Positions 4,959 through 16,226 of a stretch of DNA of 64,000 bases are shown here, one piece after another. Numbering within the stretch: position 1 is the stretch's first letter; each line of letters begins with the position of its first letter. Below the pieces are notes generated by a model, which saw nothing but the letters and a program-made list of their open reading frames with translations, searched no databases and was not told where the DNA came from. The DNA is from Cellulomonas phragmiteti (GTDB taxonomy: Bacteria > Actinomycetota > Actinomycetes > Actinomycetales > Cellulomonadaceae): positions 1-64,000 of the forward strand of contig NZ_BONP01000001.1 in NCBI RefSeq assembly GCF_016862775.1, in the 5' to 3' direction. Position numbers and translations under genes: made by a program.

Positions 4959-5897
4959 TCAGGCGGCCCGCGAGCCGAAGACGTGCAGGTCGAGGTCGGC
5001 GCTGAGCGCCTCGCAGGCCAGGCGGCCGCGCACGCTCGTGCCCTGCTCGTCCAGCGGCGGGCTGACGACCGCCACGCCCAGGACCCCAGGGACGGACAGC
5101 ACGATCGCACCCGACACGCTCGACTTGGCCGGGACCCCGACGCTGCGCATCCACCGGCCCGAGCCGTCGTACACCCCGCAGGTGGCCATGACCGAGACGA
5201 CGTCACGCGCGACGTCGACGGGCACGACGCGCTCCCCGGTGACCGGGTTGACGCCGCCGCACGCGAGCGTCGCCCCCATGACCGCCAGCGCCCGCGCGTC
5301 CACGAGGACCGCGCAGGCGCGCGCGTAGACCGCGACGGCGTCGTCCGCGCTGATGCTCAGCGTGCCCTCGGCGCGCATGAGGTGCGCCAGGGCGTGGTTG
5401 CGGTCGCCCAGCAGGTGCTCGCTGCGCGCGACGCCCTCGTCGACCTCGAGCTCCTGGCCCGCGAACGCGGACAGCCCGCGCAGGATGCGCGCGTCGCGCG
5501 AGGCGACGTCGCCTCCGTCGACGAGCGCGGCGGTGAGCAGCGCGCCCGCGTTGACCATGGGGTTCGGCGGGCGTCCGGTGCCCGTCTCGAGCTTGATCGC
5601 GTCGAACGCCTCGCCGGTCGGCTCGATGCCGATGAGGTCCAGCGCGTCGCCGCCGGTGTCGAGCAGCGCGAGGGCGAAGAGGAACGGCTTGACGGCCGAC
5701 TGCACGCTGAACGGCACGTCGCCCTGCGCGCTGGCACGCACCGTGCCGTCCGCCAGGGCCAGTGCGACGCCGCACAGGTCCGGGTCGGCATCGCGCAGCT
5801 GCGGGATGCTGTCGTCCACGGTGCCTCCGTGCTCGTCCAGCACCCGCTCCCGCAGGTCGTCGAGGTCGTAGCCGTGGGCGTCCACCGAGCGGGTCAT
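4959..5897 (-). CDS. glsA: Glutaminase
   Basis: This 312-residue enzyme belongs to the serine-dependent glutaminase family (beta-lactamase fold) that hydrolyses L-glutamine to glutamate and ammonia in the cytosol. The catalytic Ser-X-X-Lys pair is in FSVQSAVKPF (Ser67, Lys70). Other family signatures are the PPNPMVNAGAL segment, the NHALAHLMRA helix and the C-terminal KSSVSGAIV motif that corresponds to the KTG-like wall of the active site. Length agrees with the family (about 305-310). It is monocistronic and divergent from the glycan operon at 6131. Confidence 0.93.
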   Translation of the reverse strand: MTRSVDAHGYDLDDLRERVLDEHGGTVDDSIPQLRDADPDLCGVALALADGTVRASAQGDVPFSVQSAVKPFLFALALLDTGGDALDLIGIEPTGEAFDAIKLETGTGRPPNPMVNAGALLTAALVDGGDVASRDARILRGLSAFAGQELEVDEGVARSEHLLGDRNHALAHLMRAEGTLSISADDAVAVYARACAVLVDARALAVMGATLACGGVNPVTGERVVPVDVARDVVSVMATCGVYDGSGRWMRSVGVPAKSSVSGAIVLSVPGVLGVAVVSPPLDEQGTSVRGRLACEALSADLDLHVFGSRAA

Positions 5898-6130: not shown

Positions 6131-7216
6131 GTGGCTGAACAACGGACCAGGGTCCTGGTGGTCGAGGACGACGCGGACACCGCCGGCTTCGTCCGGACGG
6201 TGCTCGCGCGCCGCGGTGGCATGGACGTCGTCGTGGCCGGCGACGCGATGTCGGCGCTCGCCGAGGTCGCGCGGCAGGTTCCCGACGTGATCCTCACGGA
6301 CATCCAGATGCCGGGGATGTCGGGGCTCGAGCTGCTGGGGGAGCTGCGCTCGCGTGCCCCCGGCGTGCCGGTCGCGGTGATGACGGCGTTCGCGTCCGTC
6401 GACTACGCGGTCGAGGCCCTGCGCCGTGACGCCGACGAGTTCCTCGTCAAGCCCGTCGCGGCCGCGATCCTCCTGGAGCGGGTCACCGCGCTCGCGGCCG
6501 AGGGGCAGGCGCGCCGGGAGGCCGCCGGCCGGCGGGACGTCGTGCTCGCGGTCGGCGCGCACCCCGACGACGTGGAGATCGGCGTGGGGGCGACCCTTGC
6601 GTCGCACCGGGCCGCGGGGGACCAGGTGGTCATCCTCACGCTGTCCGGCGGGGCGGTCGGCGGTGACACCCAGGCGCGGCGCCACGAGGCGCTGGCCGCG
6701 GCCGCCGTCATCGGCGCCCGGCTCTTCGTCCACGACTTCGAGGACACGCGCATGTCCCCGGCGGCAGGGCTCATCACCGCCGTCGAGGAGACGGTGCGCG
6801 ACGTGTCGCCGACGGTCGTGTACACGCACTCGTCGCACGACCGCCACCAGGACCACCGGGCGGTGCACGAGGCCGTCATGGTCGCGACGCGGCGCGTGCC
6901 GTCCCTCGCGTGCTTCCAGAGCCCGTCGTGCACCGTGGACTTCCGCCCGACGCGGTTCGTGCCCGTCGACGGGTTCGTCGAGACGAAGCTCGAGATGCTG
7001 GCCGCGTTCACGTCGCAGTCCCACCGCGACTACATGGACCCGGAGGCCGTGCGCTCGGCCGCCCGCTACTGGTCACGCTTCGGCACCGGGCGCTTCGCGG
7101 AGCCGCTGGAGACGGTGCGTGCGGCGGCGATGCTGTCCGGTCACGCGGGCGCCGCAGCCTCGACGGGCGTGAGCGTCGGCCTGCCGGAGCAGCGCCACGG
7201 GGAGAGGTCCGCATGA
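6131..7216 (+). CDS. Response regulator receiver fused to a PIG-L/LmbE deacetylase
   Basis: The 361-residue protein has an N-terminal receiver domain (residues 5-122) with the acidic pocket (EDD 12-14), phosphoacceptor Asp57 in ILTDIQMPGMSG, Thr85 and Lys107. After a short Ala/Arg helix it continues, in the same frame, into a PIG-L domain (136-335) with the zinc motif AHPDDVEIG (143-151) and the histidine-rich HDRHQDH segment (236-242). PIG-L enzymes remove acetyl groups from N-acetylglucosamine conjugates in the cytoplasm. The design implies that phosphorylation of Asp57 controls the deacetylase directly. There is no DNA-binding domain. GTG 6131 has GGGAGG upstream. The stop overlaps the next start by 4 bases. 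Confidence 0.9.
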   Translation: MAEQRTRVLVVEDDADTAGFVRTVLARRGGMDVVVAGDAMSALAEVARQVPDVILTDIQMPGMSGLELLGELRSRAPGVPVAVMTAFASVDYAVEALRRDADEFLVKPVAAAILLERVTALAAEGQARREAAGRRDVVLAVGAHPDDVEIGVGATLASHRAAGDQVVILTLSGGAVGGDTQARRHEALAAAAVIGARLFVHDFEDTRMSPAAGLITAVEETVRDVSPTVVYTHSSHDRHQDHRAVHEAVMVATRRVPSLACFQSPSCTVDFRPTRFVPVDGFVETKLEMLAAFTSQSHRDYMDPEAVRSAARYWSRFGTGRFAEPLETVRAAAMLSGHAGAAASTGVSVGLPEQRHGERSA

Positions 7217-8181
7217 CGCGCGTGCTCGTCACCGGAGCGGGCGGGCCCGCCGGTGTCGCCGTGATCCGCTCGCTGCTGCGCCGCGGTGACGTCGAAGTGG
7301 TCGCCGCGGACATGGACCGCTGGGCCAGCGCGCTGTACCTCGTGCCCGCGGGCAACCGCCGGCTCGTGCCCGCGGGCCGCGCGGCGGACTTCGTGGACGT
7401 CGTGCGTGCCATGTGCGCGCGGGACCGCATCGACGTGCTCCTCCCGACGGTCGACGTCGAGCTGCCGCGGCTCGCCGCTGCACGCGACACGCTTGCGGCG
7501 GCCGGCACCCGCCTGGCCTCCCCGTCGCTGCGGACCCTCGACACCTGCCTCGACAAGCTCGCGCTCGCGCACGCGTGCACCGGTGTGGTCCGGGTCCCGC
7601 GCACCGAGCTGCTGGGCACACCCCAGGCGCTGGCCGGCTGGGACTTCCCCGTGATCGTCAAGCCCCGGCGCGGCGCGGGGTCGCGGGGCGTGCGGACCGT
7701 CGCGTCGGCGCGGGAGCTCGACGCGGTGCACGACGACGACGACCTGCTCGTGCAGGAGATGCTGCCCGGGCAGGAGTACTCCGTCGACGTGCTGGCCGAC
7801 TCCACGGGGCACGTGATCGCCGCCGTGCCGCGCGCGCGCCTGCGCGTCGACTCCGGCGTCGCGGTCGCCGGTGTCACCGTGCACGACGACGAGCTCGTCG
7901 CGACCGCGACCGCGGTCGCCCGGGCCGTCGGGCTGACGTCGGTCGCCAACGTGCAGCTCAAGCGCGACGCCGACGGCGTCCCGGCGCTGCTCGAGGTCAA
8001 CCCCCGGTTCCCCGGCGCGATGCCGCTGACGATCGCCGCGGGCGTCGACATGCCCTCGATCACGCTCGACGACGTGCTCGGCCGCGAGGTGCCGCGGCAC
8101 CTCGACTTCGTCGAGATCGCGAACGTCCGCTACCTGGAGGACGTGTTCCTGCCCGTGGCCGACGTGCTGCCCGAGCCGTGA
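7213..8181 (+). CDS. ATP-grasp ligase (carbamoyl-phosphate synthase-like)
   Basis: This 322-residue protein has a pre-ATP-grasp Rossmann-like domain (VLVTGAGGPAGVAVIRS, residues 4-20) and an ATP-grasp fold with nucleotide-binding Lys150 (VIVKPRRGAGSRG), the QEYSVDVL strand (188-194) and the metal-binding EVNPRFPG loop (261-268). ATP-grasp enzymes join a carboxylate to an amine or other nucleophile through an acyl phosphate. In this locus it may attach an amino acid or similar group to a sugar precursor; that role is inferred from neighbours only. It starts with ATGA overlapping the deacetylase stop and ends in GTGA overlapping the PHP gene. Confidence 0.85.
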   Translation: MTRVLVTGAGGPAGVAVIRSLLRRGDVEVVAADMDRWASALYLVPAGNRRLVPAGRAADFVDVVRAMCARDRIDVLLPTVDVELPRLAAARDTLAAAGTRLASPSLRTLDTCLDKLALAHACTGVVRVPRTELLGTPQALAGWDFPVIVKPRRGAGSRGVRTVASARELDAVHDDDDLLVQEMLPGQEYSVDVLADSTGHVIAAVPRARLRVDSGVAVAGVTVHDDELVATATAVARAVGLTSVANVQLKRDADGVPALLEVNPRFPGAMPLTIAAGVDMPSITLDDVLGREVPRHLDFVEIANVRYLEDVFLPVADVLPEP

Positions 8182-8912
8182 GGGGCGCTCCCGGGGGTGC
8201 GCCGCGGGTCGACGGCGACCACCACGTCCACTCGACGTTCTCCGACGACGCCGTCAGCACCCTCGTCGAGAACCTCGACGCGGCGCGTCACGCCGGGCTG
8301 GCCGTCATCCGCATGGTCGACCACGTCCGCGTCACGACGACCTACGTGCCGGAGATGCTCGCGGCCGTCCGGGCGCTGCCCGCGGTCGACGGGCTGCAGG
8401 TCCTCACCGGCGTCGAGGCGAAGGTCCTCGACGCGTCGGGGGCGATCGACGCCCCGCCGCAGGTGCTCGCGTCGCTCGGGAGCCCCGACGGCCCGGACCG
8501 CGTCCTGCTGGCCGACCACCAGGTCCCGGGCCCCGACGGGCCGTGGAGCCCGGCCACGGCCACGCGCCTGATCGCCGAGGGACGCGTGACGGCGGCCGAC
8601 GTCGTCGAGCTCGTCGTCACCGCGACCGCCCGTGCCGTGCAGCGGGCGGGACGTGCCCAGCTCGCGCACCCGTTCTCGATCCTGCCGAAGGTCGGCCTCG
8701 CGGAGGACGACGTCCCCGACGACCTGCTCGACGAGCTCGCGCGGGTGCTCGTGGCGACGGCGACCCCGGCCGAGGTCAACGAGAAGTGGCGCTGCCCCGG
8801 CCCGCGCGTCACGGACCGGTGGCGGGCCGCGGGCGTGACGCTCGTGGCGTCCACCGACGCGCACCGCGCGGCCGACGTCGGCGTGTACCGGTGGGTGGGA
8901 GCGGTGGCGTGA
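8178..8912 (+). CDS. PHP-domain metal-dependent hydrolase
   Basis: The 244-residue protein shows the metal ligands of the PHP fold: HxH (H16, H18 in DHHVHSTFSDDA), D48-H49, E80, H164 in AHPFS and the C-terminal STDAH (D227, H229). PHP proteins hydrolyse phosphoesters, for example histidinol phosphate or polymerase by-products; some serve as phosphatases in capsule loci. Here it lies between the ATP-grasp gene and the glycosyltransferase with 4-base overlaps on both sides, so it may dephosphorylate a glycan precursor or a protein of the system. The substrate is unknown. Confidence 0.85.
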   Translation: MRGAPGGAPRVDGDHHVHSTFSDDAVSTLVENLDAARHAGLAVIRMVDHVRVTTTYVPEMLAAVRALPAVDGLQVLTGVEAKVLDASGAIDAPPQVLASLGSPDGPDRVLLADHQVPGPDGPWSPATATRLIAEGRVTAADVVELVVTATARAVQRAGRAQLAHPFSILPKVGLAEDDVPDDLLDELARVLVATATPAEVNEKWRCPGPRVTDRWRAAGVTLVASTDAHRAADVGVYRWVGAVA

Positions 8913-10396
8913 GCGACAGCACCTGGCACGCGGTGCTGGTGGCGGTGCTCGTCACCCTCGTCGCCGTCGGGCTGCTGCCCGCCGTCGGCGGCGTCTACCA
9001 GTACCTGCTGGTCCCCGTCCACGGGTTCCGCAACCACCTGCGGCGTGCCGGGCCGTACCTGCCGCGCGTCGCCGTGGTCGTGCCCGCGTGGAACGAGGGC
9101 GCCGTGCTCGAGGCGTCGCTCGAGCGGCTGATGCGCCTGCAGTACCCGCCGGACCGGCTGCGCGTGTTCGTCGTCGACGACGCCAGCACCGACGACACGC
9201 CGGACGTGGTGCGCGCCAAGGCCGCCGAGCACCCCGGGCGGATCGTGCTGCTGCGCCGCGAGCAGGGGGGCCAGGGCAAGGCGCACACGCTGAACCACGG
9301 GATCGCGCACCTGCTGTCCGACGACTGGATGCAGGCCCTGCTCATCATGGACGCCGACGTCATCTACCGCCCCGACGCGCTGCGCCGCATGACCCGTCAC
9401 CTCGCCGACGAGCGGGTCGGGGCGGTCACCGCGTACATCCGGGAGGGCAGCCGACGCCCCGGTGCGATCGCCCGCTTCATCGGCTACGAGTACGTCACGG
9501 CCCAGGCGTGCGCCCGCCGCGCGCAGAACGTCATGGGCGCGATCGCGTGCCTGGCCGGCGGTGCCCAGCTGCACACCCGGGCCAACCTGGAGGCCGTCGG
9601 CGGGCGCATCGACACCTCGACGCTCGCCGAGGACACCTTCACCACGTTCCTCACCCAGCTCGACGGCCGCTCGGTCGTCTTCGACGGGCAGGCGGTCGTG
9701 CTCGCCGAGGAGCCGGACTCGGTGCGCGCGCTGTGGAAGCAGCGCGTGCGGTGGGCGCGCGGCAACGTGCAGATCACGCACCGGTTCCGGCGCGTGTGGT
9801 TCCGACCCGCGCGCGGGCACCGGCTCGGGGCCGTCGACTTCGGGCTCGTCTGGTTCTCGGTGTTCGCCCTGCCGTTCACGCTGATCGCCGCGAGCGTCGG
9901 CCTGGTCGGCCTGTACTTCGCGGCACCCGGCACGGCGGCCGCGGTGTTCGGCGAGCTGTGGTGGTTCGGGATCGCGACCTACGTGTTCATCACCGTGACG
10001 ACGCTGCTCGTCGACCTGGAGACCGCACGCCGGTCGTGGTTCGAGGGCCTGATGTTCCCGGGCGTGGGCGCGCTCGTGCTGGTGGTCGCCTCCGCCCATC
10101 CCGAGTTCTGGCTGGTCACCGTGCCGGGCCTGGTCGGGCTGCGGATGTCCGCGACCGGCACCGAAGTGTGGACGCTCCTGCTCTACTGCTGGCCCGTGCT
10201 GTCGATGGCGCTGTCCCGGGTGGTCCACGACCTCGAGGGCGTGCCGGTGCTGGGGCACCTGTCCAAGCCCTTGCTGTACGTCGTGGGGTACGGGCCGCTG
10301 CTGTGCGCGATCACCCTGGACGCATACGTCCGGCAGTGGCGGGGCACGGCGCAGGTGTGGGACAAGACCGAGAAGACGGGCAAGGTGGCGGCATGA
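8909..10396 (+). CDS. Processive membrane glycosyltransferase, family GT2
   Basis: The 495-residue integral membrane enzyme has one N-terminal helix (about 8-36), a cytosolic GT-A domain and about five C-terminal helices. Hallmarks of processive polysaccharide synthases such as BcsA, PgaC and hyaluronan synthase are all present: DD (90-91), DAD (148-150), ED (241-242) and QRVRW (278-282). It should polymerise a nucleotide sugar and move the chain across the membrane. Together with the PIG-L deacetylase, a GlcNAc-containing polymer similar in principle to poly-GlcNAc is the simplest guess. The GTG start overlaps the preceding stop. Confidence 0.9.
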   Translation: MSDSTWHAVLVAVLVTLVAVGLLPAVGGVYQYLLVPVHGFRNHLRRAGPYLPRVAVVVPAWNEGAVLEASLERLMRLQYPPDRLRVFVVDDASTDDTPDVVRAKAAEHPGRIVLLRREQGGQGKAHTLNHGIAHLLSDDWMQALLIMDADVIYRPDALRRMTRHLADERVGAVTAYIREGSRRPGAIARFIGYEYVTAQACARRAQNVMGAIACLAGGAQLHTRANLEAVGGRIDTSTLAEDTFTTFLTQLDGRSVVFDGQAVVLAEEPDSVRALWKQRVRWARGNVQITHRFRRVWFRPARGHRLGAVDFGLVWFSVFALPFTLIAASVGLVGLYFAAPGTAAAVFGELWWFGIATYVFITVTTLLVDLETARRSWFEGLMFPGVGALVLVVASAHPEFWLVTVPGLVGLRMSATGTEVWTLLLYCWPVLSMALSRVVHDLEGVPVLGHLSKPLLYVVGYGPLLCAITLDAYVRQWRGTAQVWDKTEKTGKVAA

Positions 10397-10572
10397 CCGG
10401 ACCGCAGGAGCGGCCGCGCAGCGGCCCGGCCTGGTGGGCGACGCTCAGCGACGAGGCGACGGCCGACGAGATCGCGACCAACCGGCGGCGCGAGCGGTTC
10501 GTCGCGTTCGCCGGTGTCGCGGCGGCGGTCGTCACCGGCCTGCTGCTGCTCGTCGTCGCGGTCGCGCGGTGA
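10393..10572 (+). CDS. Small single-helix membrane protein of the glycan operon
   Basis: This 59-residue protein has a polar N-terminal half (residues 1-38, ending ATNRRRERFVAF) and one hydrophobic helix (AGVAAAVVTGLLLLVVAVA). It overlaps both neighbours by 4 bases, which speaks for a real gene. The layout, a cytosolic tail and one C-terminal helix next to a synthase, recalls small auxiliary subunits such as PgaD that assist a synthase, but no sequence similarity can be claimed. Confidence 0.7.
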   Translation: MTGPQERPRSGPAWWATLSDEATADEIATNRRRERFVAFAGVAAAVVTGLLLLVVAVAR

Positions 10573-12332
10573 GCGAGCCGACGCCGCGCATCGTCGACGA
10601 GCCCCGGCACCTGCGGTACCTCGGGCCGGTCGCCCGGTACCTGGGGACGGGCGCGACGGTCGTGGAGCGCCAGCTGCCGTTCACCGGGCTCATGCTCCTG
10701 GCGCTGGTGGGGGTGCTGCTGCCCGGGCTGCGGGCCACGTCGGGCGCGGCCGTGGCGGTCGCGGGGGTGCTCACGGTCGTGCTCCTGCTGCTCGCGGCCG
10801 TGGTGCCCTGGCGGCGCTTCGGGCCCCTGACCCCCGAGGTGCTCACGCTCCTGCAGTTCGTGGCCATCGGCGCGCTCCGGCACGGCACGGGCGGGTTGAG
10901 CTCGCCGTACGCGGGGATGGTGCTGCTGCCGGCGCTGACGCTCAGCGTGCGGGCGGGCCTGCCCGGGGTCGTCGTCGGCGCGGCGGGAGCGGCCGTCTCG
11001 ATCCTCGTCGGGCTGTGGCTGGACCCGAGCTCGACCGCCGAGCCCGTGGTGCTCCGCGGGCTGTTCGTCGCGGCGATCGCCCTGATCATCGGGCTGTTCG
11101 TCAACGAGACGACCACCCGGCTCCGGCTGCGCAACGACGCCCTCGCACTGCTGCAGGTGGAGCAGGCCGGACTGCTGGCGACCGCGCGGGAGGCCGCGGC
11201 GGCGCTGGAGCGGGCGGTCGTGGTCCGGCGTGCCGCCTACGACCAGCTGGTCTCCGTGATCGACTCCGCCACCGAGCAGGCGATCATCGCCACGGACGCC
11301 TCGGGGCGCATCGAGGTGTTCAACGCCGGTGCGGAGCGCCTGCTCGGCTACCCGCAGGGGGAGGTCGTCGGGCGCCGGTACCTCGCGGACCTGCACCTGC
11401 GCGACGAGGTCCTGGCGCGCACGGGCGAGGAGCCGGGGCGGGGAGAGCAGGACGCGCTCATCGCGGCGCTGGTGGCGCCCCGTCGCGGGCCGAGCCGCTC
11501 CCCGGCCGCCGACTGGACGTACGTGCGCGCGGACGGGTCGCACGTGACCGTGCACCCGGCGGTGACCCGCCGCACCGAGCCCGACGGCAGCGTGGCCGGG
11601 TACGTCGTGGTCGCGTCCGACGTGACCGCGGAGCGGGAGGCCGCCCGGCTGAAGGACCAGTTCGTCAGTCTCGTCAGCCACGAGCTGCGCACCCCGCTGA
11701 CCTCGGTGCTGGGGTACGTCGAGCTCATGCTCGACGGCACGGAGGAGCTCAGCGAGGACCAGCGCGAGTACCTGCGCATCATCGACCGCAACGCGCGGCG
11801 GCAGCTGCGCCTGGTGAGCGACCTGCTGCTGTCGGCGCAGGTCGAGGCCGGGACGTTCGCGATCTCCCCGACGGACGTCGACGTCGCCGCCGTCGCGTCC
11901 GCCGCGGTCGCGTCCGCGGGGCCGTCGGCGGCCGCCGCGCAGGTCGTCCTCGAGTCGGACCTGCGGGCCGCGCCGGTGCGCGCCGACCCGGTGCGTCTGG
12001 GCCAGGCGGTCGACAACCTGCTGTCCAACGCGCTGAAGTTCACGCCGCAGGGCGGCACGGTCCGGGTCTCGGTGGAGCCCACGGCCGACGCGGGTGCCCG
12101 CGTCGCGGTGCGCGACACAGGCATCGGGATCCCGCCGGACGAGCTCGGCCACCTGATGGAGCGCTTCTACCGGGCGAGCACCGCGACCCGCCGCGCCATC
12201 CCCGGCGTGGGTCTCGGGCTGTCGATCACCAAGGCCGTCGTCGAGGCGCACGGCGGGTCGGTCGAGGTGACGTCCGTGGTGGGCGAGGGGACGACGTTCA
12301 CGCTCACCCTCCCGGGGCACCCGCCGACCTGA
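10569..12332 (+). CDS. Membrane PAS-domain sensor histidine kinase
   Basis: The 587-residue kinase has five to six N-terminal membrane helices (about 37-180) with almost no extracellular loop, a linker coil, a PAS domain (about 225-350), a HisKA helix with phosphorylated His371 (SLVSHELRTPLTSVLGY) and an HATPase domain with N483/N487, DTGIG (516-520) and GVGLGLSITKAVVEAHGG. It ends the operon that begins with the receiver-deacetylase fusion and is the obvious phosphate donor for Asp57 of that protein. The sensor is likely to read a signal within the membrane or the cytosol. Start GTG overlaps the preceding stop. Confidence 0.92.
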   Translation: MSEPTPRIVDEPRHLRYLGPVARYLGTGATVVERQLPFTGLMLLALVGVLLPGLRATSGAAVAVAGVLTVVLLLLAAVVPWRRFGPLTPEVLTLLQFVAIGALRHGTGGLSSPYAGMVLLPALTLSVRAGLPGVVVGAAGAAVSILVGLWLDPSSTAEPVVLRGLFVAAIALIIGLFVNETTTRLRLRNDALALLQVEQAGLLATAREAAAALERAVVVRRAAYDQLVSVIDSATEQAIIATDASGRIEVFNAGAERLLGYPQGEVVGRRYLADLHLRDEVLARTGEEPGRGEQDALIAALVAPRRGPSRSPAADWTYVRADGSHVTVHPAVTRRTEPDGSVAGYVVVASDVTAEREAARLKDQFVSLVSHELRTPLTSVLGYVELMLDGTEELSEDQREYLRIIDRNARRQLRLVSDLLLSAQVEAGTFAISPTDVDVAAVASAAVASAGPSAAAAQVVLESDLRAAPVRADPVRLGQAVDNLLSNALKFTPQGGTVRVSVEPTADAGARVAVRDTGIGIPPDELGHLMERFYRASTATRRAIPGVGLGLSITKAVVEAHGGSVEVTSVVGEGTTFTLTLPGHPPT

Positions 12333-12371
12333 CGGTCGCGACCGGGTGATCACGTGCTGCTCCGCACGTGT

Positions 12372-12381
12372 GAAACGCTTC
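12372..12381. promoter_or_regulatory. LacI-type half-palindrome upstream of the xylan genes
   Basis: GAAACGCTTC has the central CG and flanking GAA/TTC arms typical of LacI-family operators in actinobacterial glycoside-hydrolase genes. It lies 155 bases before the GH43 start. Confidence 0.4.
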
Positions 12382-12471
12382 GACGACGCTCCAGGTCTTG
12401 TTCGGCGCTCCGGTTCGTGGGCAGCATGGCGCCGATCCGCCGCGACGTCGACGACGCCGTCCGCGGCGGGT

Positions 12472-12485
12472 TGTGAACGATCACA
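12472..12485. promoter_or_regulatory. Inverted repeat TGTGAACGATCACA upstream of GH43
   Basis: The arms TGTGA/TCACA are exact around a central CG, as in LacI or CRP-like operators. It lies about 50 bases before the GH43 start and could block or activate the promoter. No regulator gene is adjacent. Confidence 0.45.
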
Positions 12486-12536
12486 CGTACGGGTGACCCG
12501 TGCGTCCGGTTCGCTCGTCCGTCCCGAGGAGGATCG

Positions 12537-14642
12537 ATGTCCGCCACGACCCCTGCCGTCGGCCGTCCCGGTGGCCGCGCGGTCGCGGTGGCCGCCGTGC
12601 TCGCCCTCACCGTGGCCGCCGGCGCCCTGGGCGCTGCGCTGGCCCCGCCCGCGGCCGCCGCCACCGTCGACACCGCGACCTCCTACGTCCTGGTCAACCG
12701 CAACAGCGGCAAGGCGCTGGACGTGTACAACTTCGCCACCTCCGACGGCGCGCGCCTGACGCAGTGGACCCGGGGGACGGCCGCCAACCAGCAGTGGCGG
12801 TTCGTCGACTCCGGCGGCGGCTGGTACCGCGTCCGGTCCCAGCACTCGGGCAAGGTGCTCGACGTCCACGGCTGGTCGACCGCCGACGCCGGCAGGGTCG
12901 TGCAGTGGTCCGACACCAACGGCGCCAACCAGCAGTGGCGCCTGCAGGACACGACCGACGGGTACGTTTCCCTGGTCAACCGCCACTCCGGGAAGGCGCT
13001 GGAGGTGCAGAACGCCTCGCGCGACGACAACGCCGAGATCGTGCAGTACAGCGCCTGGGGCGGCACCAACCAGCAGTGGCAGCTCGTGCCCGTAGGGAGC
13101 CCCGTGACACCGACGCCGAACCCCACCACGCCGCCGCCCGCCACCGGCTCCTTCACCAATCCCGTGGTCTGGCAGGACTTCGCCGACGGCGACATCATCC
13201 GGGTCGGCGACGCGTACTACTACTCCGCCTCGACGATGCACTACTCGCCGGGTGCGCCGATCCTGCGGTCGTACGACCTCGTGAACTGGGAGTACGCCGG
13301 GCACTCGGTACCGCGGCTCGACTTCGACGACGCGACGTACGACCTCACGGGCGGCCGCCGGTACGTCAAGGGCATCTGGGCGTCGACGCTGAACTACCGA
13401 CCCAGCAACCGCACCTACTACTGGTACGGCTGCGTCGAGTTCAACCGCACCTACGTCTACACGGCCTCGGCCGTCGACGGGACGTGGACCAAGAAGGCGC
13501 GCATCAACAACTGCTACTACGACGCCGGGCTCCTGATCGACGACGACGACACCATGTACGTCGCGTACGGCAACGGCACCATCAGCGTCGCGCAGCTCAG
13601 CGCCGACGGCACGCAGCAGGTCCGCGCGCAGCAGGTGTACCAGACGCCGTCCGGCATCGGGACGCTCGAGGGTGCCCGCTTCTACAAGAAGGACGGCTAC
13701 TACTACATCTGGCTGACCCGCCCGGCCAACGGGCAGTACGTGCTCCGCTCGCGCTCGCCCTTCGGCCCGTACGAGCAGCGCCAGGTGCTGCTCGACCTGC
13801 CCGGCCCGATCAGCGGCGGGGGAGTGCCGCACCAGGGCGGGATCGTCCAGACCCAGGCCGGCGACTGGTGGTACATGGCGTTCACCGACGCCTACCCCGG
13901 CGGTCGCATGCCGACGCTCGCACCGCTGACCTGGACCGACGGCTGGCCCAGCGTGCAGACCGTCAACGGCCGGTGGGGCACCACCTACCCGCGGCCGGCC
14001 ATCAGCACCACGCGCACCGTGCAGCCCATGACCGGCCGGGACACGTTCACCGGCACGCGCCTCGGGCCGCGGTGGGAGTGGAACCACAACCCCGACACCA
14101 CCCGGTTCTCGGTCGGCAACGGGCTGCGCCTGCAGACCGCCACGGTCACGAACGACCTGTACGCCGCGCGCAACACGCTGACCCACCGCGTCCAGGGACC
14201 GACCTCCACCGCCACGATCGAGCTCGACTACTCCGCGATGGCGAACGGTGACCGGGCCGGGCTCGCGATGCTGCGTCAGTCGTCCGCGTGGATCGGCGTG
14301 GTCAAGGGCAGCAACGGGGCCACCCGGGTCGTCATGACCGACGGGCTGACGATGAACACGTCGTGGGCGACGACCAGCACGGGCAGCGAGCGGGCGAGCG
14401 CCGACGTCAGCGGCGGTCGCATCTGGCTGCGGACGTCGGCGGACATCCGCCCCGGCGCGGGCCGGCAGGCGACGTTCTCCTACAGCACCGACGGCACGAC
14501 CTTCCGGACCCTCGGCCCGGCGTTCACGCTCAACAACGACTGGCAATTCTTCATGGGCTACCGGTTCGGCATCTTCAACCACGCGACGAGCAGCCTGGGT
14601 GGTGCGGTGACGGTCCGCAGCTTCGACCTGACGACGCCCTGA
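12537..14642 (+). CDS. Secreted GH43 arabinofuranosidase/xylosidase with N-terminal CBM13
   Basis: The 701-residue precursor has a signal peptide (about 1-42, ending PPAAAA), a ricin-type beta-trefoil CBM13 (46-184) with three QW repeats (NQQWRF, NQQWRL, NQQWQL), a Pro/Thr linker, a GH43 five-blade propeller (about 205-500) and a C-terminal concanavalin-like domain (about 500-701). Candidate catalytic residues are Asp217 or Asp219 in DFADGDIIR and Glu378 in TLEGARFYKKDGYYY. It probably trims arabinose or xylose side groups from xylan outside the cell. The start has GAGGAGG upstream. The GH10 xylanase follows 84 bases downstream, and the two likely share one transcript and substrate. Confidence 0.9.
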   Translation: MSATTPAVGRPGGRAVAVAAVLALTVAAGALGAALAPPAAAATVDTATSYVLVNRNSGKALDVYNFATSDGARLTQWTRGTAANQQWRFVDSGGGWYRVRSQHSGKVLDVHGWSTADAGRVVQWSDTNGANQQWRLQDTTDGYVSLVNRHSGKALEVQNASRDDNAEIVQYSAWGGTNQQWQLVPVGSPVTPTPNPTTPPPATGSFTNPVVWQDFADGDIIRVGDAYYYSASTMHYSPGAPILRSYDLVNWEYAGHSVPRLDFDDATYDLTGGRRYVKGIWASTLNYRPSNRTYYWYGCVEFNRTYVYTASAVDGTWTKKARINNCYYDAGLLIDDDDTMYVAYGNGTISVAQLSADGTQQVRAQQVYQTPSGIGTLEGARFYKKDGYYYIWLTRPANGQYVLRSRSPFGPYEQRQVLLDLPGPISGGGVPHQGGIVQTQAGDWWYMAFTDAYPGGRMPTLAPLTWTDGWPSVQTVNGRWGTTYPRPAISTTRTVQPMTGRDTFTGTRLGPRWEWNHNPDTTRFSVGNGLRLQTATVTNDLYAARNTLTHRVQGPTSTATIELDYSAMANGDRAGLAMLRQSSAWIGVVKGSNGATRVVMTDGLTMNTSWATTSTGSERASADVSGGRIWLRTSADIRPGAGRQATFSYSTDGTTFRTLGPAFTLNNDWQFFMGYRFGIFNHATSSLGGAVTVRSFDLTTP

Positions 14643-16226
<1,584 letters not shown>

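What the first reader, a model, noticed from the sequence alone, without database searches (positions are those of the whole stretch)
6131..12332. Six-gene self-contained glycan assembly and sensing operon
Receiver-deacetylase, ATP-grasp ligase, PHP hydrolase, processive GT2 synthase, one-helix protein and PAS kinase are chained by 4-base overlaps in every junction, so they form one translational unit. The regulator is the first gene and its kinase the last. I infer a surface polymer whose deacetylation is switched by a membrane sensor; I know of no named system with this content.
Basis: partly seen in the sequence, partly recalled or inferred. Interest (0 to 1): 0.8.

Follow-up and report, generated by a model that had tools for sequence, protein, structure and literature searches.

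The report
Sensor-controlled amino-sugar polymer operon
A six-gene bacterial operon joins a membrane sensor to an enzyme that probably strips acetyl groups from sugar building blocks of a surface polymer, and much the same gene set recurs in distant bacteria, so it looks like a real and so far unnamed way to switch surface chemistry by protein phosphorylation.

Summary
Six genes at 6131-12332 encode a receiver/PIG-L deacetylase fusion, an ATP-grasp ligase, a PHP hydrolase, a membrane GT2, a one-helix protein and a PAS histidine kinase; all five junctions are 4-base overlaps. It is not chance: the first four genes recur in the same order and strand in 47 of 59 contigs carrying a GT2 orthologue, in several actinobacterial families. 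Rearranged versions outside actinobacteria add H-NOX sensors (3 loci) and BcsB-like cellulose-synthase subunits (3 loci). The receiver's phospho-acceptor and the deacetylase's zinc motif are kept in 50 of 50 aligned rows. Distant relatives have a membrane-type PIG-L beside ATP-grasp and GT2; in four loci the receiver-PIG-L sits beside such a foreign ATP-grasp/GT2 pair. Most likely: a kinase switches N-deacetylation of a cytoplasmic amino-sugar precursor, the ligase re-acylates the amine, and GT2 makes and exports the polymer. Substrate, product and signal are unknown; nothing was assayed. No paper listed in my searches described it. New variant of synthase-dependent polysaccharide loci; interest 0.55.

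The parts
6131..7216 (+). Receiver domain fused to PIG-L/LmbE-type de-N-acetylase (361 aa)
   Evidence: Pfam Response_reg 95.9 bits and PIG-L 91.1 bits; D57 50/50, D13/D14/T85/K107 49/50 each, AHPDD and HQDH zinc motif 50/50 in 50 aligned rows (the partial L036 row was dropped for length)
7213..8181 (+). ATP-grasp ligase, PRK12767/ATPgrasp_Ter-like (322 aa)
   Evidence: Pfam ATPgrasp_Ter 118.1 bits; best solved match 2pn1, 90.5 bits; E261 and N263 in 53/53 rows
8178..8912 (+). PHP-domain metallohydrolase (244 aa)
   Evidence: Pfam PHP at cut-off 26.4; weak match to YcdX 1m65, E 0.0015; H18, H49, E80, H114, H164, D227, H229 in 50/50 rows, H16 in 49/50
8909..10396 (+). Membrane GT2 glycosyltransferase, PgaC/BcsA-like (495 aa)
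   Evidence: Pfam Glyco_tranf_2_3 109.7 bits; NCBIfam best PgaC_IcaA 124.6 bits, below cut-off 422.3; invariant DxD, ED, QRxRW and C-terminal WDKTxKxG over 24 chosen rows
10393..10572 (+). One-helix membrane protein (59 aa), proposed small subunit of the GT2
   Evidence: one hydrophobic helix 37-55; a one-helix frame follows GT2 in 50 of 57 loci with enough sequence, most rows sharing a pattern like EI..(D/N)RR.ER (pattern by eye)
10569..12332 (+). Membrane PAS sensor histidine kinase (587 aa)
   Evidence: Pfam PAS, HisKA, HATPase_c; H371 in 41/41 aligned kinases; five hydrophobic windows, two of them overlapping, before the PAS domain

Best explanation
The operon is a synthase-dependent polysaccharide locus under two-component control at the level of enzyme activity. 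The kinase at 10569-12332 phosphorylates D57 of the receiver-PIG-L protein (6131-7216) and thereby changes its de-N-acetylase activity. That enzyme, cytoplasmic, removes the acetyl group from an N-acetylhexosamine precursor (nucleotide- or lipid-linked; UDP-GlcNAc-type is the simplest guess). The ATP-grasp ligase joins a carboxylate, perhaps an amino acid, to the freed amine. The GT2 polymerises and exports the product with the one-helix protein as subunit; the PHP protein removes a phosphoester somewhere in the path. Shown here: genes, motifs, conserved linkage, partner exchange. Inferred: phospho-control of the enzyme, substrate, N-acylation, processivity, subunit role, PHP step.
For: Four-gene core conserved in 47 of 59 loci. 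Reverse search with the receiver-PIG-L profile: 8 of 296 genomes of the class match, the window's own included; of the 7 others, 6 have an ATP-grasp and a GT2 in the fetched stretch, though two of those six (L120, L121) have a PIG-L without receiver and two (L117, L121) only distant ATP-grasp and GT2 (30-39% identity). Phospho-acceptor and zinc ligands retained; kinase H371 in 41/41. Receiver-less unit: PIG-L with hydrophobic N-terminal helices, ATP-grasp and GT2 side by side in L063, L066, L068, L070, L074, L077, L082, so deacetylase + ligase + GT2 looks like the enzymatic unit and the receiver like an added control. In L062, L065, L067 and L117 the only PIG-L found in the stretch is the receiver form, beside a triad-type ATP-grasp/GT2 and near a kinase, and it branches in a supported clade with the Cellulomonas proteins: natural partner exchange. 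BcsB-like proteins near L050, L051, L052 argue for export of a polymer. GT2 is nearest PgaC among NCBIfam models in the window and in triads L066 and L070.
Against: No enzyme activity or product is known. A receiver-less PIG-L sits in an otherwise complete core (L120) and Streptomyces L053 has no recognisable receiver, so phospho-control is not obligatory. L033 has ATP-grasp, PHP and GT2 but no PIG-L found by tblastn. L119 has receiver-PIG-L and kinase with no GT2 or ATP-grasp match in 19 kb. GT2 plus the small protein occurs without the others in L023-L025 (only L025 has 8 kb on both sides). Of the 47 core loci 7 have no kinase over 150 bits on the same strand, two of them with little sequence after GT2. 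L094 has no recognisable BcsB by Pfam or NCBIfam.
Confidence: 0.5

Rival explanations
1. A small glycoside or glycolipid pathway built like mycothiol/bacillithiol synthesis: GT2 adds one GlcNAc to a lipid or small acceptor, PIG-L deacetylates it, ATP-grasp adds an amino acid to the amine; no polymer.
For: PIG-L matches BshB1 best among the NCBIfam models shown (84.3 bits, below cut-off 182.5), and the order GT, deacetylase, ligase is that of thiol-sugar synthesis (recalled). Solved relatives of the PIG-L include BshB1 and a pseudoaglycone deacetylase.
Against: GT2 has three strong hydrophobic segments after the catalytic part and the QRxRW motif, NCBIfam ranks PgaC first, and L050, L051 and L052 carry BcsB-like proteins, which are partner subunits of cellulose synthases (recalled).
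Confidence: 0.2
2. The product is an already described polymer: partly deacetylated poly-GlcNAc, or the curdlan-type glucan reported for Cellulomonas.
For: PgaC is the best NCBIfam model. Curdlan is reported as abundant in C. flavigena and in small amounts in C. fimi and other species; each of three cellulomonads has two GT2 proteins 35-39% identical to Agrobacterium curdlan synthase (PMC3544764, section 17 read and passages seen). I could not test whether one of those is the orthologue of this GT2, and I had no curdlan synthase sequence to compare.
Against: PgaC cut-off not met (124.6 of 422.3). No PF01522 deacetylase in the operon; the genome's two are on contigs C34 and C29. A beta-glucan needs no de-N-acetylase or amide ligase. 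C. flavigena, the abundant producer, is not among the 80 loci kept by the GT2 scan (the scan can miss). This genome has at least two other GT2 genes that look membrane-bound by eye.
Confidence: 0.15
3. The receiver-PIG-L is a regulator that has nothing enzymatic to do with the polymer: the PIG-L part binds or cleaves another metabolite, and the genes are grouped only for common expression.
For: L119 carries receiver-PIG-L, a kinase and a second receiver protein (230 aa) without the synthase; PIG-L/LmbE enzymes include amidases with other substrates (PMC4101496, start of abstract, keywords and two passages seen).
Against: PIG-L with hydrophobic N-terminal helices takes the same place beside ATP-grasp and GT2 in distant loci, and the receiver form can stand in for it.
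Confidence: 0.1

Closest known systems
Poly-GlcNAc synthase-dependent systems (PgaABCD / IcaADBC)
   Same: membrane GT2 synthase plus a de-N-acetylase and a small membrane protein (their make-up recalled)
   Different: deacetylase is PIG-L and apparently cytoplasmic, not the exported PF01522 type; ATP-grasp and PHP added; GT2 far below the PgaC cut-off; a receiver on the deacetylase
Bacterial cellulose synthase BcsA/BcsB
   Same: GT2 with QRxRW and, in L050, L051 and L052, a BcsB-like protein nearby
   Different: CelA model far below cut-off (57.5 of 699.1), no PilZ domain found in the six proteins, deacetylase and ligase present, no BcsB among the six window proteins
Mycothiol/bacillithiol synthesis (deacetylase MshB/BshB followed by amide ligation)
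   Same: logic of de-N-acetylation of GlcNAc and then amide formation on the free amine (recalled)
   Different: BshB1 cut-off not met; ligase is ATP-grasp; GT2 is a multi-pass membrane protein
Unnamed receiver-less triad: PIG-L, ATP-grasp, GT2 (Isoptericola, Glutamicibacter, Gulosibacter, Trueperella, Propionibacteriaceae, Chloroflexales, Methanosarcina)
   Same: same three enzyme families side by side; GT2 has QRVRW in 8 of 8 and a W(N)K(L)-type ending visible in 5 of 8
   Different: PIG-L has N-terminal hydrophobic helices in 7 of 8 and no receiver in the 5 scanned; no PHP found by tblastn (the one-helix protein was not sought sensitively); GT2 only 28-37% identical
Response regulators with enzymatic output domains
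   Same: receiver fused to an enzyme instead of a DNA-binding domain
   Different: output is a PIG-L de-N-acetylase; no paper listed seemed to describe this pair, judged by title and start of abstract

Membership tests
Poly-GlcNAc synthesis (Pga/Ica) | GT2 passes the PgaC/IcaA equivalog cut-off | tested here: not met
   124.6 bits against 422.3
Poly-GlcNAc synthesis (Pga/Ica) | polysaccharide deacetylase of the PF01522 type in the locus | tested here: not met
   none among the six proteins; the genome's two PF01522 matches lie on contigs C34 and C29
Cellulose synthase (Bcs) | catalytic subunit passes the CelA equivalog | tested here: not met
   57.5 bits against 699.1
Cellulose synthase (Bcs) | BcsB partner | tested here: not met
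   not among the six window proteins; BcsB-like found near L050, L051, L052, no match in L094
Bacillithiol-type deacetylase BshB1 | PIG-L passes the BshB1 cut-off | tested here: not met
   84.3 bits against 182.5
Two-component system | histidine kinase with phospho-acceptor His and ATPase domain | tested here: met
   HisKA 72.8 and HATPase_c 111.1 bits; H371 in 41/41
Two-component system | receiver with acidic pair, phospho-Asp, Thr and Lys | tested here: met
   D13, D14, D57, T85, K107 in 49-50 of 50 rows
Two-component system | phosphotransfer between this kinase and this receiver | not testable with these tools
   only co-location, 40 of 47 core loci
PIG-L/LmbE zinc de-N-acetylase | AHPDD and HxDH metal-binding motif | tested here: met
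   50/50 rows
PIG-L/LmbE zinc de-N-acetylase | removal of acetyl from a GlcNAc-type substrate | not testable with these tools
   needs an assay
Processive GT2 synthases | DxD, ED and QxxRW motifs with membrane helices after the catalytic domain | tested here: met
   D148xD150, E241D242, Q278-W282 invariant in 24 rows; three strong hydrophobic segments after the catalytic part
Processive GT2 synthases | processive polymerisation and export | not testable with these tools
   needs an assay
Ter-operon ATP-grasp pathway | ATP-grasp of PF15632 together with ter genes | tested here: not met
   PF15632 118.1 bits but no ter family among the six proteins; wider surroundings not searched for ter genes

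The most novel reading that the evidence does not exclude
A class of surface polymer whose amino groups are stripped of acetyl and re-acylated with another carboxylate before polymerisation, with the stripping step itself switched by receiver phosphorylation; different lineages have plugged different sensors (a membrane PAS kinase, other kinases, H-NOX gas sensors with kinases) into the same deacetylase, and moved that switchable deacetylase onto foreign ligase/synthase pairs.
Probability: 0.35. Interest if true: 0.8.

Novelty: new variant of a known kind. Interest (0 to 1): 0.55.

Why it matters
Control of exopolysaccharides is best known at transcription or by c-di-GMP binding to the synthase (recalled). 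Here the phosphorylation target would be the sugar-modifying enzyme itself, giving a fast, transcription-free switch of surface charge and chemistry. The recurring deacetylase/ATP-grasp/GT2 unit also predicts an N-acylated (perhaps aminoacylated) polymer that I found no description of, testable in culturable Cellulomonas, and the versions with H-NOX would tie the same output to nitric-oxide or oxygen sensing.

Tried and rejected
Chance grouping: rejected by synteny and by the reverse search. Plain Pga/Ica, Bcs or bacillithiol membership: rejected by curated cut-offs. One-helix protein as DUF3040: below cut-off; a PHROGs search gave only a match at E 0.13. One-helix protein as a remnant of the BcsB membrane anchor: considered after reading BcsB-like C-termini; dropped because its basic stretch precedes the helix, so the likely topology is reversed (inference). 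Leptothrix sheath genes as relatives: lthB is called a GT8 protein in a reference title (PMC13386937, passages seen), so dropped. The EPS cluster that PMC3544764 names in C. fimi and C. gilvus (section 17 read) is listed with other genes (phosphoglycerate mutase, ABC transporters) and does not look like this one; its figure was not held. Actinoplanes sporangium clusters (PMC13390465, passages seen): described as Wzx/Wzy and GtrA types. Thauera floc deacetylase (PMC4784049, passages seen): polysaccharide deacetylase in another kind of cluster. P. aeruginosa DnpA (PMC6048251, passages seen): PIG-L in an LPS cluster, substrate unknown, a loose analogue. Plasmid relatives: 42 records, none covering 80% of GT2; the 40 listed are at 38% identity or less. 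Literature: ten searches; some searches were aimed at this gene content. Searches found no paper, 12 and 16 listed all 8 and 3, 59 and 60 listed 15 of 419 and 20 of 63; none listed seems from title and start of abstract to describe it. Most papers of subscription journals are missing from that library.
Full report
What is there. The window lies in a 4.15 Mb genome (G000) whose GT2 is 92% identical to that of Cellulomonas avistercoris. Six genes run on the + strand from 6131 to 12332, each overlapping the next by 4 bases. Upstream, divergently, is a 312-aa frame at 4959-5897; downstream come frames of 701 aa (12537-14642) and 499 aa (14727-16226) that I read by eye as glycoside hydrolases (recalled, not searched). 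I did not search the families of the neighbours, so other sugar genes nearby are not excluded.

The proteins. The first protein has both a receiver and a PIG-L domain. The PHP match is exactly at its cut-off. The small protein matches nothing above a cut-off. In NCBIfam none of the families shown reaches its cut-off (for the first and last proteins 25 of 97 and 25 of 82 are shown): GT2 is nearest PgaC/IcaA (124.6 bits, cut-off 422.3), PIG-L nearest BshB1 (84.3, cut-off 182.5), ATP-grasp nearest the PRK12767 group (164.2, cut-off 390), kinase nearest PnpS (231.8, cut-off 400). By sequence the best solved matches are 6yv7 and the cellulose synthase 5ej1 for GT2, 1uan, 2ixd and BshB1 6p2t for PIG-L, 2pn1 for ATP-grasp and YcdX 1m65, weakly, for PHP.

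Conservation. A scan of one genome per species found 180 relatives of GT2, of which the best 80 are held. L003-L061 (59 loci) match at 44% identity or more, the rest at 37% or less. Of the 59, 47 carry receiver-PIG-L, ATP-grasp, PHP and GT2 in this order on one strand; 4-base overlaps are kept at 36, 30 and 34 of 47 junctions (starts were chosen by script). The 12 others are L005, L045, L058 and L061, whose contig is cut within the operon or close to GT2; L023-L025, three Cellulomonas with GT2 and the small protein only (L025 with 8 kb on both sides, the other two with little upstream); Nakamurella L033 without PIG-L; and L050-L052 and L055, not actinobacterial or unassigned, with another order or, in L055, no partner found. 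A kinase related to the window's (over 150 bits) is on the same strand in 40 of 47 (37 downstream, 3 upstream). A one-helix frame follows GT2 in 50 of 57 loci with enough sequence, 45 of 50 with the 4-base overlap (the script preferred that start), and in none of L050, L051, L052 and L061. One or two single receivers lie downstream of GT2 in 24 of 59 loci; L003-L006, L047 and L056, among the window's closest, have none.

Motifs. Over 50 rows of receiver-PIG-L (window and 49 loci; partial L036 dropped) the phospho-acceptor D57 and the zinc motif are in all, the other receiver residues in 49 each. Streptomyces L053 has no Pfam receiver. GT2 keeps DxD, ED, QRxRW and a C-terminal WDKTxKxG in 24 rows chosen from the 59 loci and the window. 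ATP-grasp keeps E261 and N263 in 53 of 53; the likely PHP ligands are in 49-50 of 50. H371 of the kinase is in 41 of 41 rows (window and 40 loci passing a score and length filter; the script failed to delimit L029, which is left out). The roles of these residues are recalled family knowledge.

Outside actinobacteria. Loci L050 (unassigned), L051 (Myxococcota) and L052 (Comamonadaceae) have receiver-PIG-L, ATP-grasp and GT2 within 10 kb in another order, and each has a BcsB-like protein. L051, L052 and L094 (from a genome in the phylum of L051) also have H-NOX proteins beside a kinase, a hybrid kinase in L051 and L094 (the H-NOX of L052 by tblastn only). L094 has PHP too, but its large protein in a similar place matches no Pfam or NCBIfam model. 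So three loci have BcsB-like and three have H-NOX, two having both.

Abundance. The GT2 profile at E 1e-80 found 10 of 121 genomes of the family, 2 of 296 of the phylum, 1 of 274 of the class of L052 and 2 of 195 of the phylum of L051. Each count includes the centre genome, and at most 12, 5, 5 and 8 candidates per genome were scored, so these are lower bounds. The system is patchy.

Reverse test. To avoid judging linkage only from GT2, I searched 296 genomes of the class with the receiver-PIG-L profile (at most 6 candidates scored per genome): 8 matches including the window's. Of the 7 others, L115, L116 and L118 have the full core; L120 has the core with a PIG-L lacking the receiver; L117 has receiver-PIG-L and a kinase beside a distant ATP-grasp/GT2 pair (32% and 35%); L121 has a receiver-less PIG-L, a 30% GT2, a 39% ATP-grasp and a WecB-type UDP-GlcNAc 2-epimerase; L119 has receiver-PIG-L, kinase and a second receiver protein, and no ATP-grasp or GT2 match.

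The older unit. Eight distant loci (L063, L066, L068, L069, L070, L074, L077, L082) have PIG-L, ATP-grasp and GT2 side by side. Five of these PIG-L proteins (L063, L066, L070, L074, L082) were scanned with Pfam and have no receiver; seven of eight have hydrophobic N-terminal helices (L069 starts at a contig end). In L062, L065, L067 and L117 the ATP-grasp/GT2 pair is of this distant type, but the only PIG-L found is the receiver form. In a tree of 42 selected PIG-L domains these four fall in a 10-row clade with the Cellulomonas proteins (support 100/99; the deep branches are unresolved, so it does not show how often the receiver was gained). I read this as exchange: the receiver form takes the place of the membrane form as partner of the same two enzymes.

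How it probably works. PIG-L/LmbE enzymes hydrolyse the amide of GlcNAc-type substrates (PMC4101496, abstract passage seen). With no hydrophobic segment this one should be cytoplasmic. GT2 synthases of this type export the chain as they build it (recalled), so a cytoplasmic deacetylase should act on the precursor. ATP-grasp enzymes form amide bonds (recalled), and the freed amine is the obvious acceptor. Phosphorylation of the receiver would open or close the first step. None of this is measured. I put about 0.65 on a kinase-controlled polysaccharide locus, 0.5 on control through a deacetylase acting on a precursor, and 0.35 on N-acylation by the ligase together with phospho-switching.

Known or new. 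Ten literature searches listed no paper that, by title and start of abstract, describes this set (see Tried and rejected). A review of the LmbE superfamily does not use the words response regulator or receiver (PMC4101496); a signalling census does not use PIG-L, LmbE or deacetylase, but it states that it left out other enzymatic output domains, so it says nothing here (PMC1183210, passages seen). The parts and the overall kind, a synthase-dependent polysaccharide locus with a deacetylase, are known; the control point and the ligase are not, as far as I could see. Hence 'new variant of a known kind'.

Noticed in passing
L051:51-605, L052:12534-13082, L094:16319-16873: H-NOX (haem-NO-binding) proteins next to histidine kinases, within about 15 kb of receiver-PIG-L and GT2 (Pfam for L051 and L094, tblastn for L052); suggests that gas sensing feeds the same output there.
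   Followed up: partly
L050:3139-5184: A PAS-GGDEF-EAL protein (Pfam) next to the receiver-PIG-L of L050; a possible c-di-GMP link.
   Followed up: no
L062, L065, L067 (10.9-12.2 kb, - strand) and L117:9163-10269: Receiver-PIG-L beside a distant-type ATP-grasp/GT2 pair with no other PIG-L found in the stretch: natural partner exchange.
   Followed up: yes
L063, L066, L068, L069, L070, L074, L077, L082: Unnamed PIG-L/ATP-grasp/GT2 triad, PIG-L mostly with N-terminal hydrophobic helices, in several actinobacteria, a Chloroflexales bin and a Methanosarcina bin.
   Followed up: partly
L025:9623-10714 (similar frame by eye in L023:3158-4246): In Cellulomonas with GT2 and the small protein but none of the other operon genes, the convergent neighbour is an HGSNAT-type membrane acetyltransferase (Pfam on L025 only); it could modify amino sugars in the opposite direction.
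   Followed up: no
L121:14101-15234: WecB-type UDP-GlcNAc 2-epimerase directly after an ATP-grasp-like frame, downstream of a receiver-less PIG-L and a GT2; a possible hint to the precursor sugar.
   Followed up: no
L119:5752-9430: Kinase, 230-aa receiver protein and receiver-PIG-L followed by two frames that look by eye like ABC exporters, without ATP-grasp or GT2: the switchable deacetylase in another setting.
   Followed up: no
L007, L010, L029, L034, L040, L059 and others, downstream of GT2: One or two single-domain receivers in 24 of 59 loci, absent in the window and its closest relatives; these systems may be branched phosphorelays.
   Followed up: partly
window 10311-14645, - strand: A 1444-aa open frame antisense to the operon end; I take it for a high-G+C artefact (75% G+C window).
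   Followed up: no
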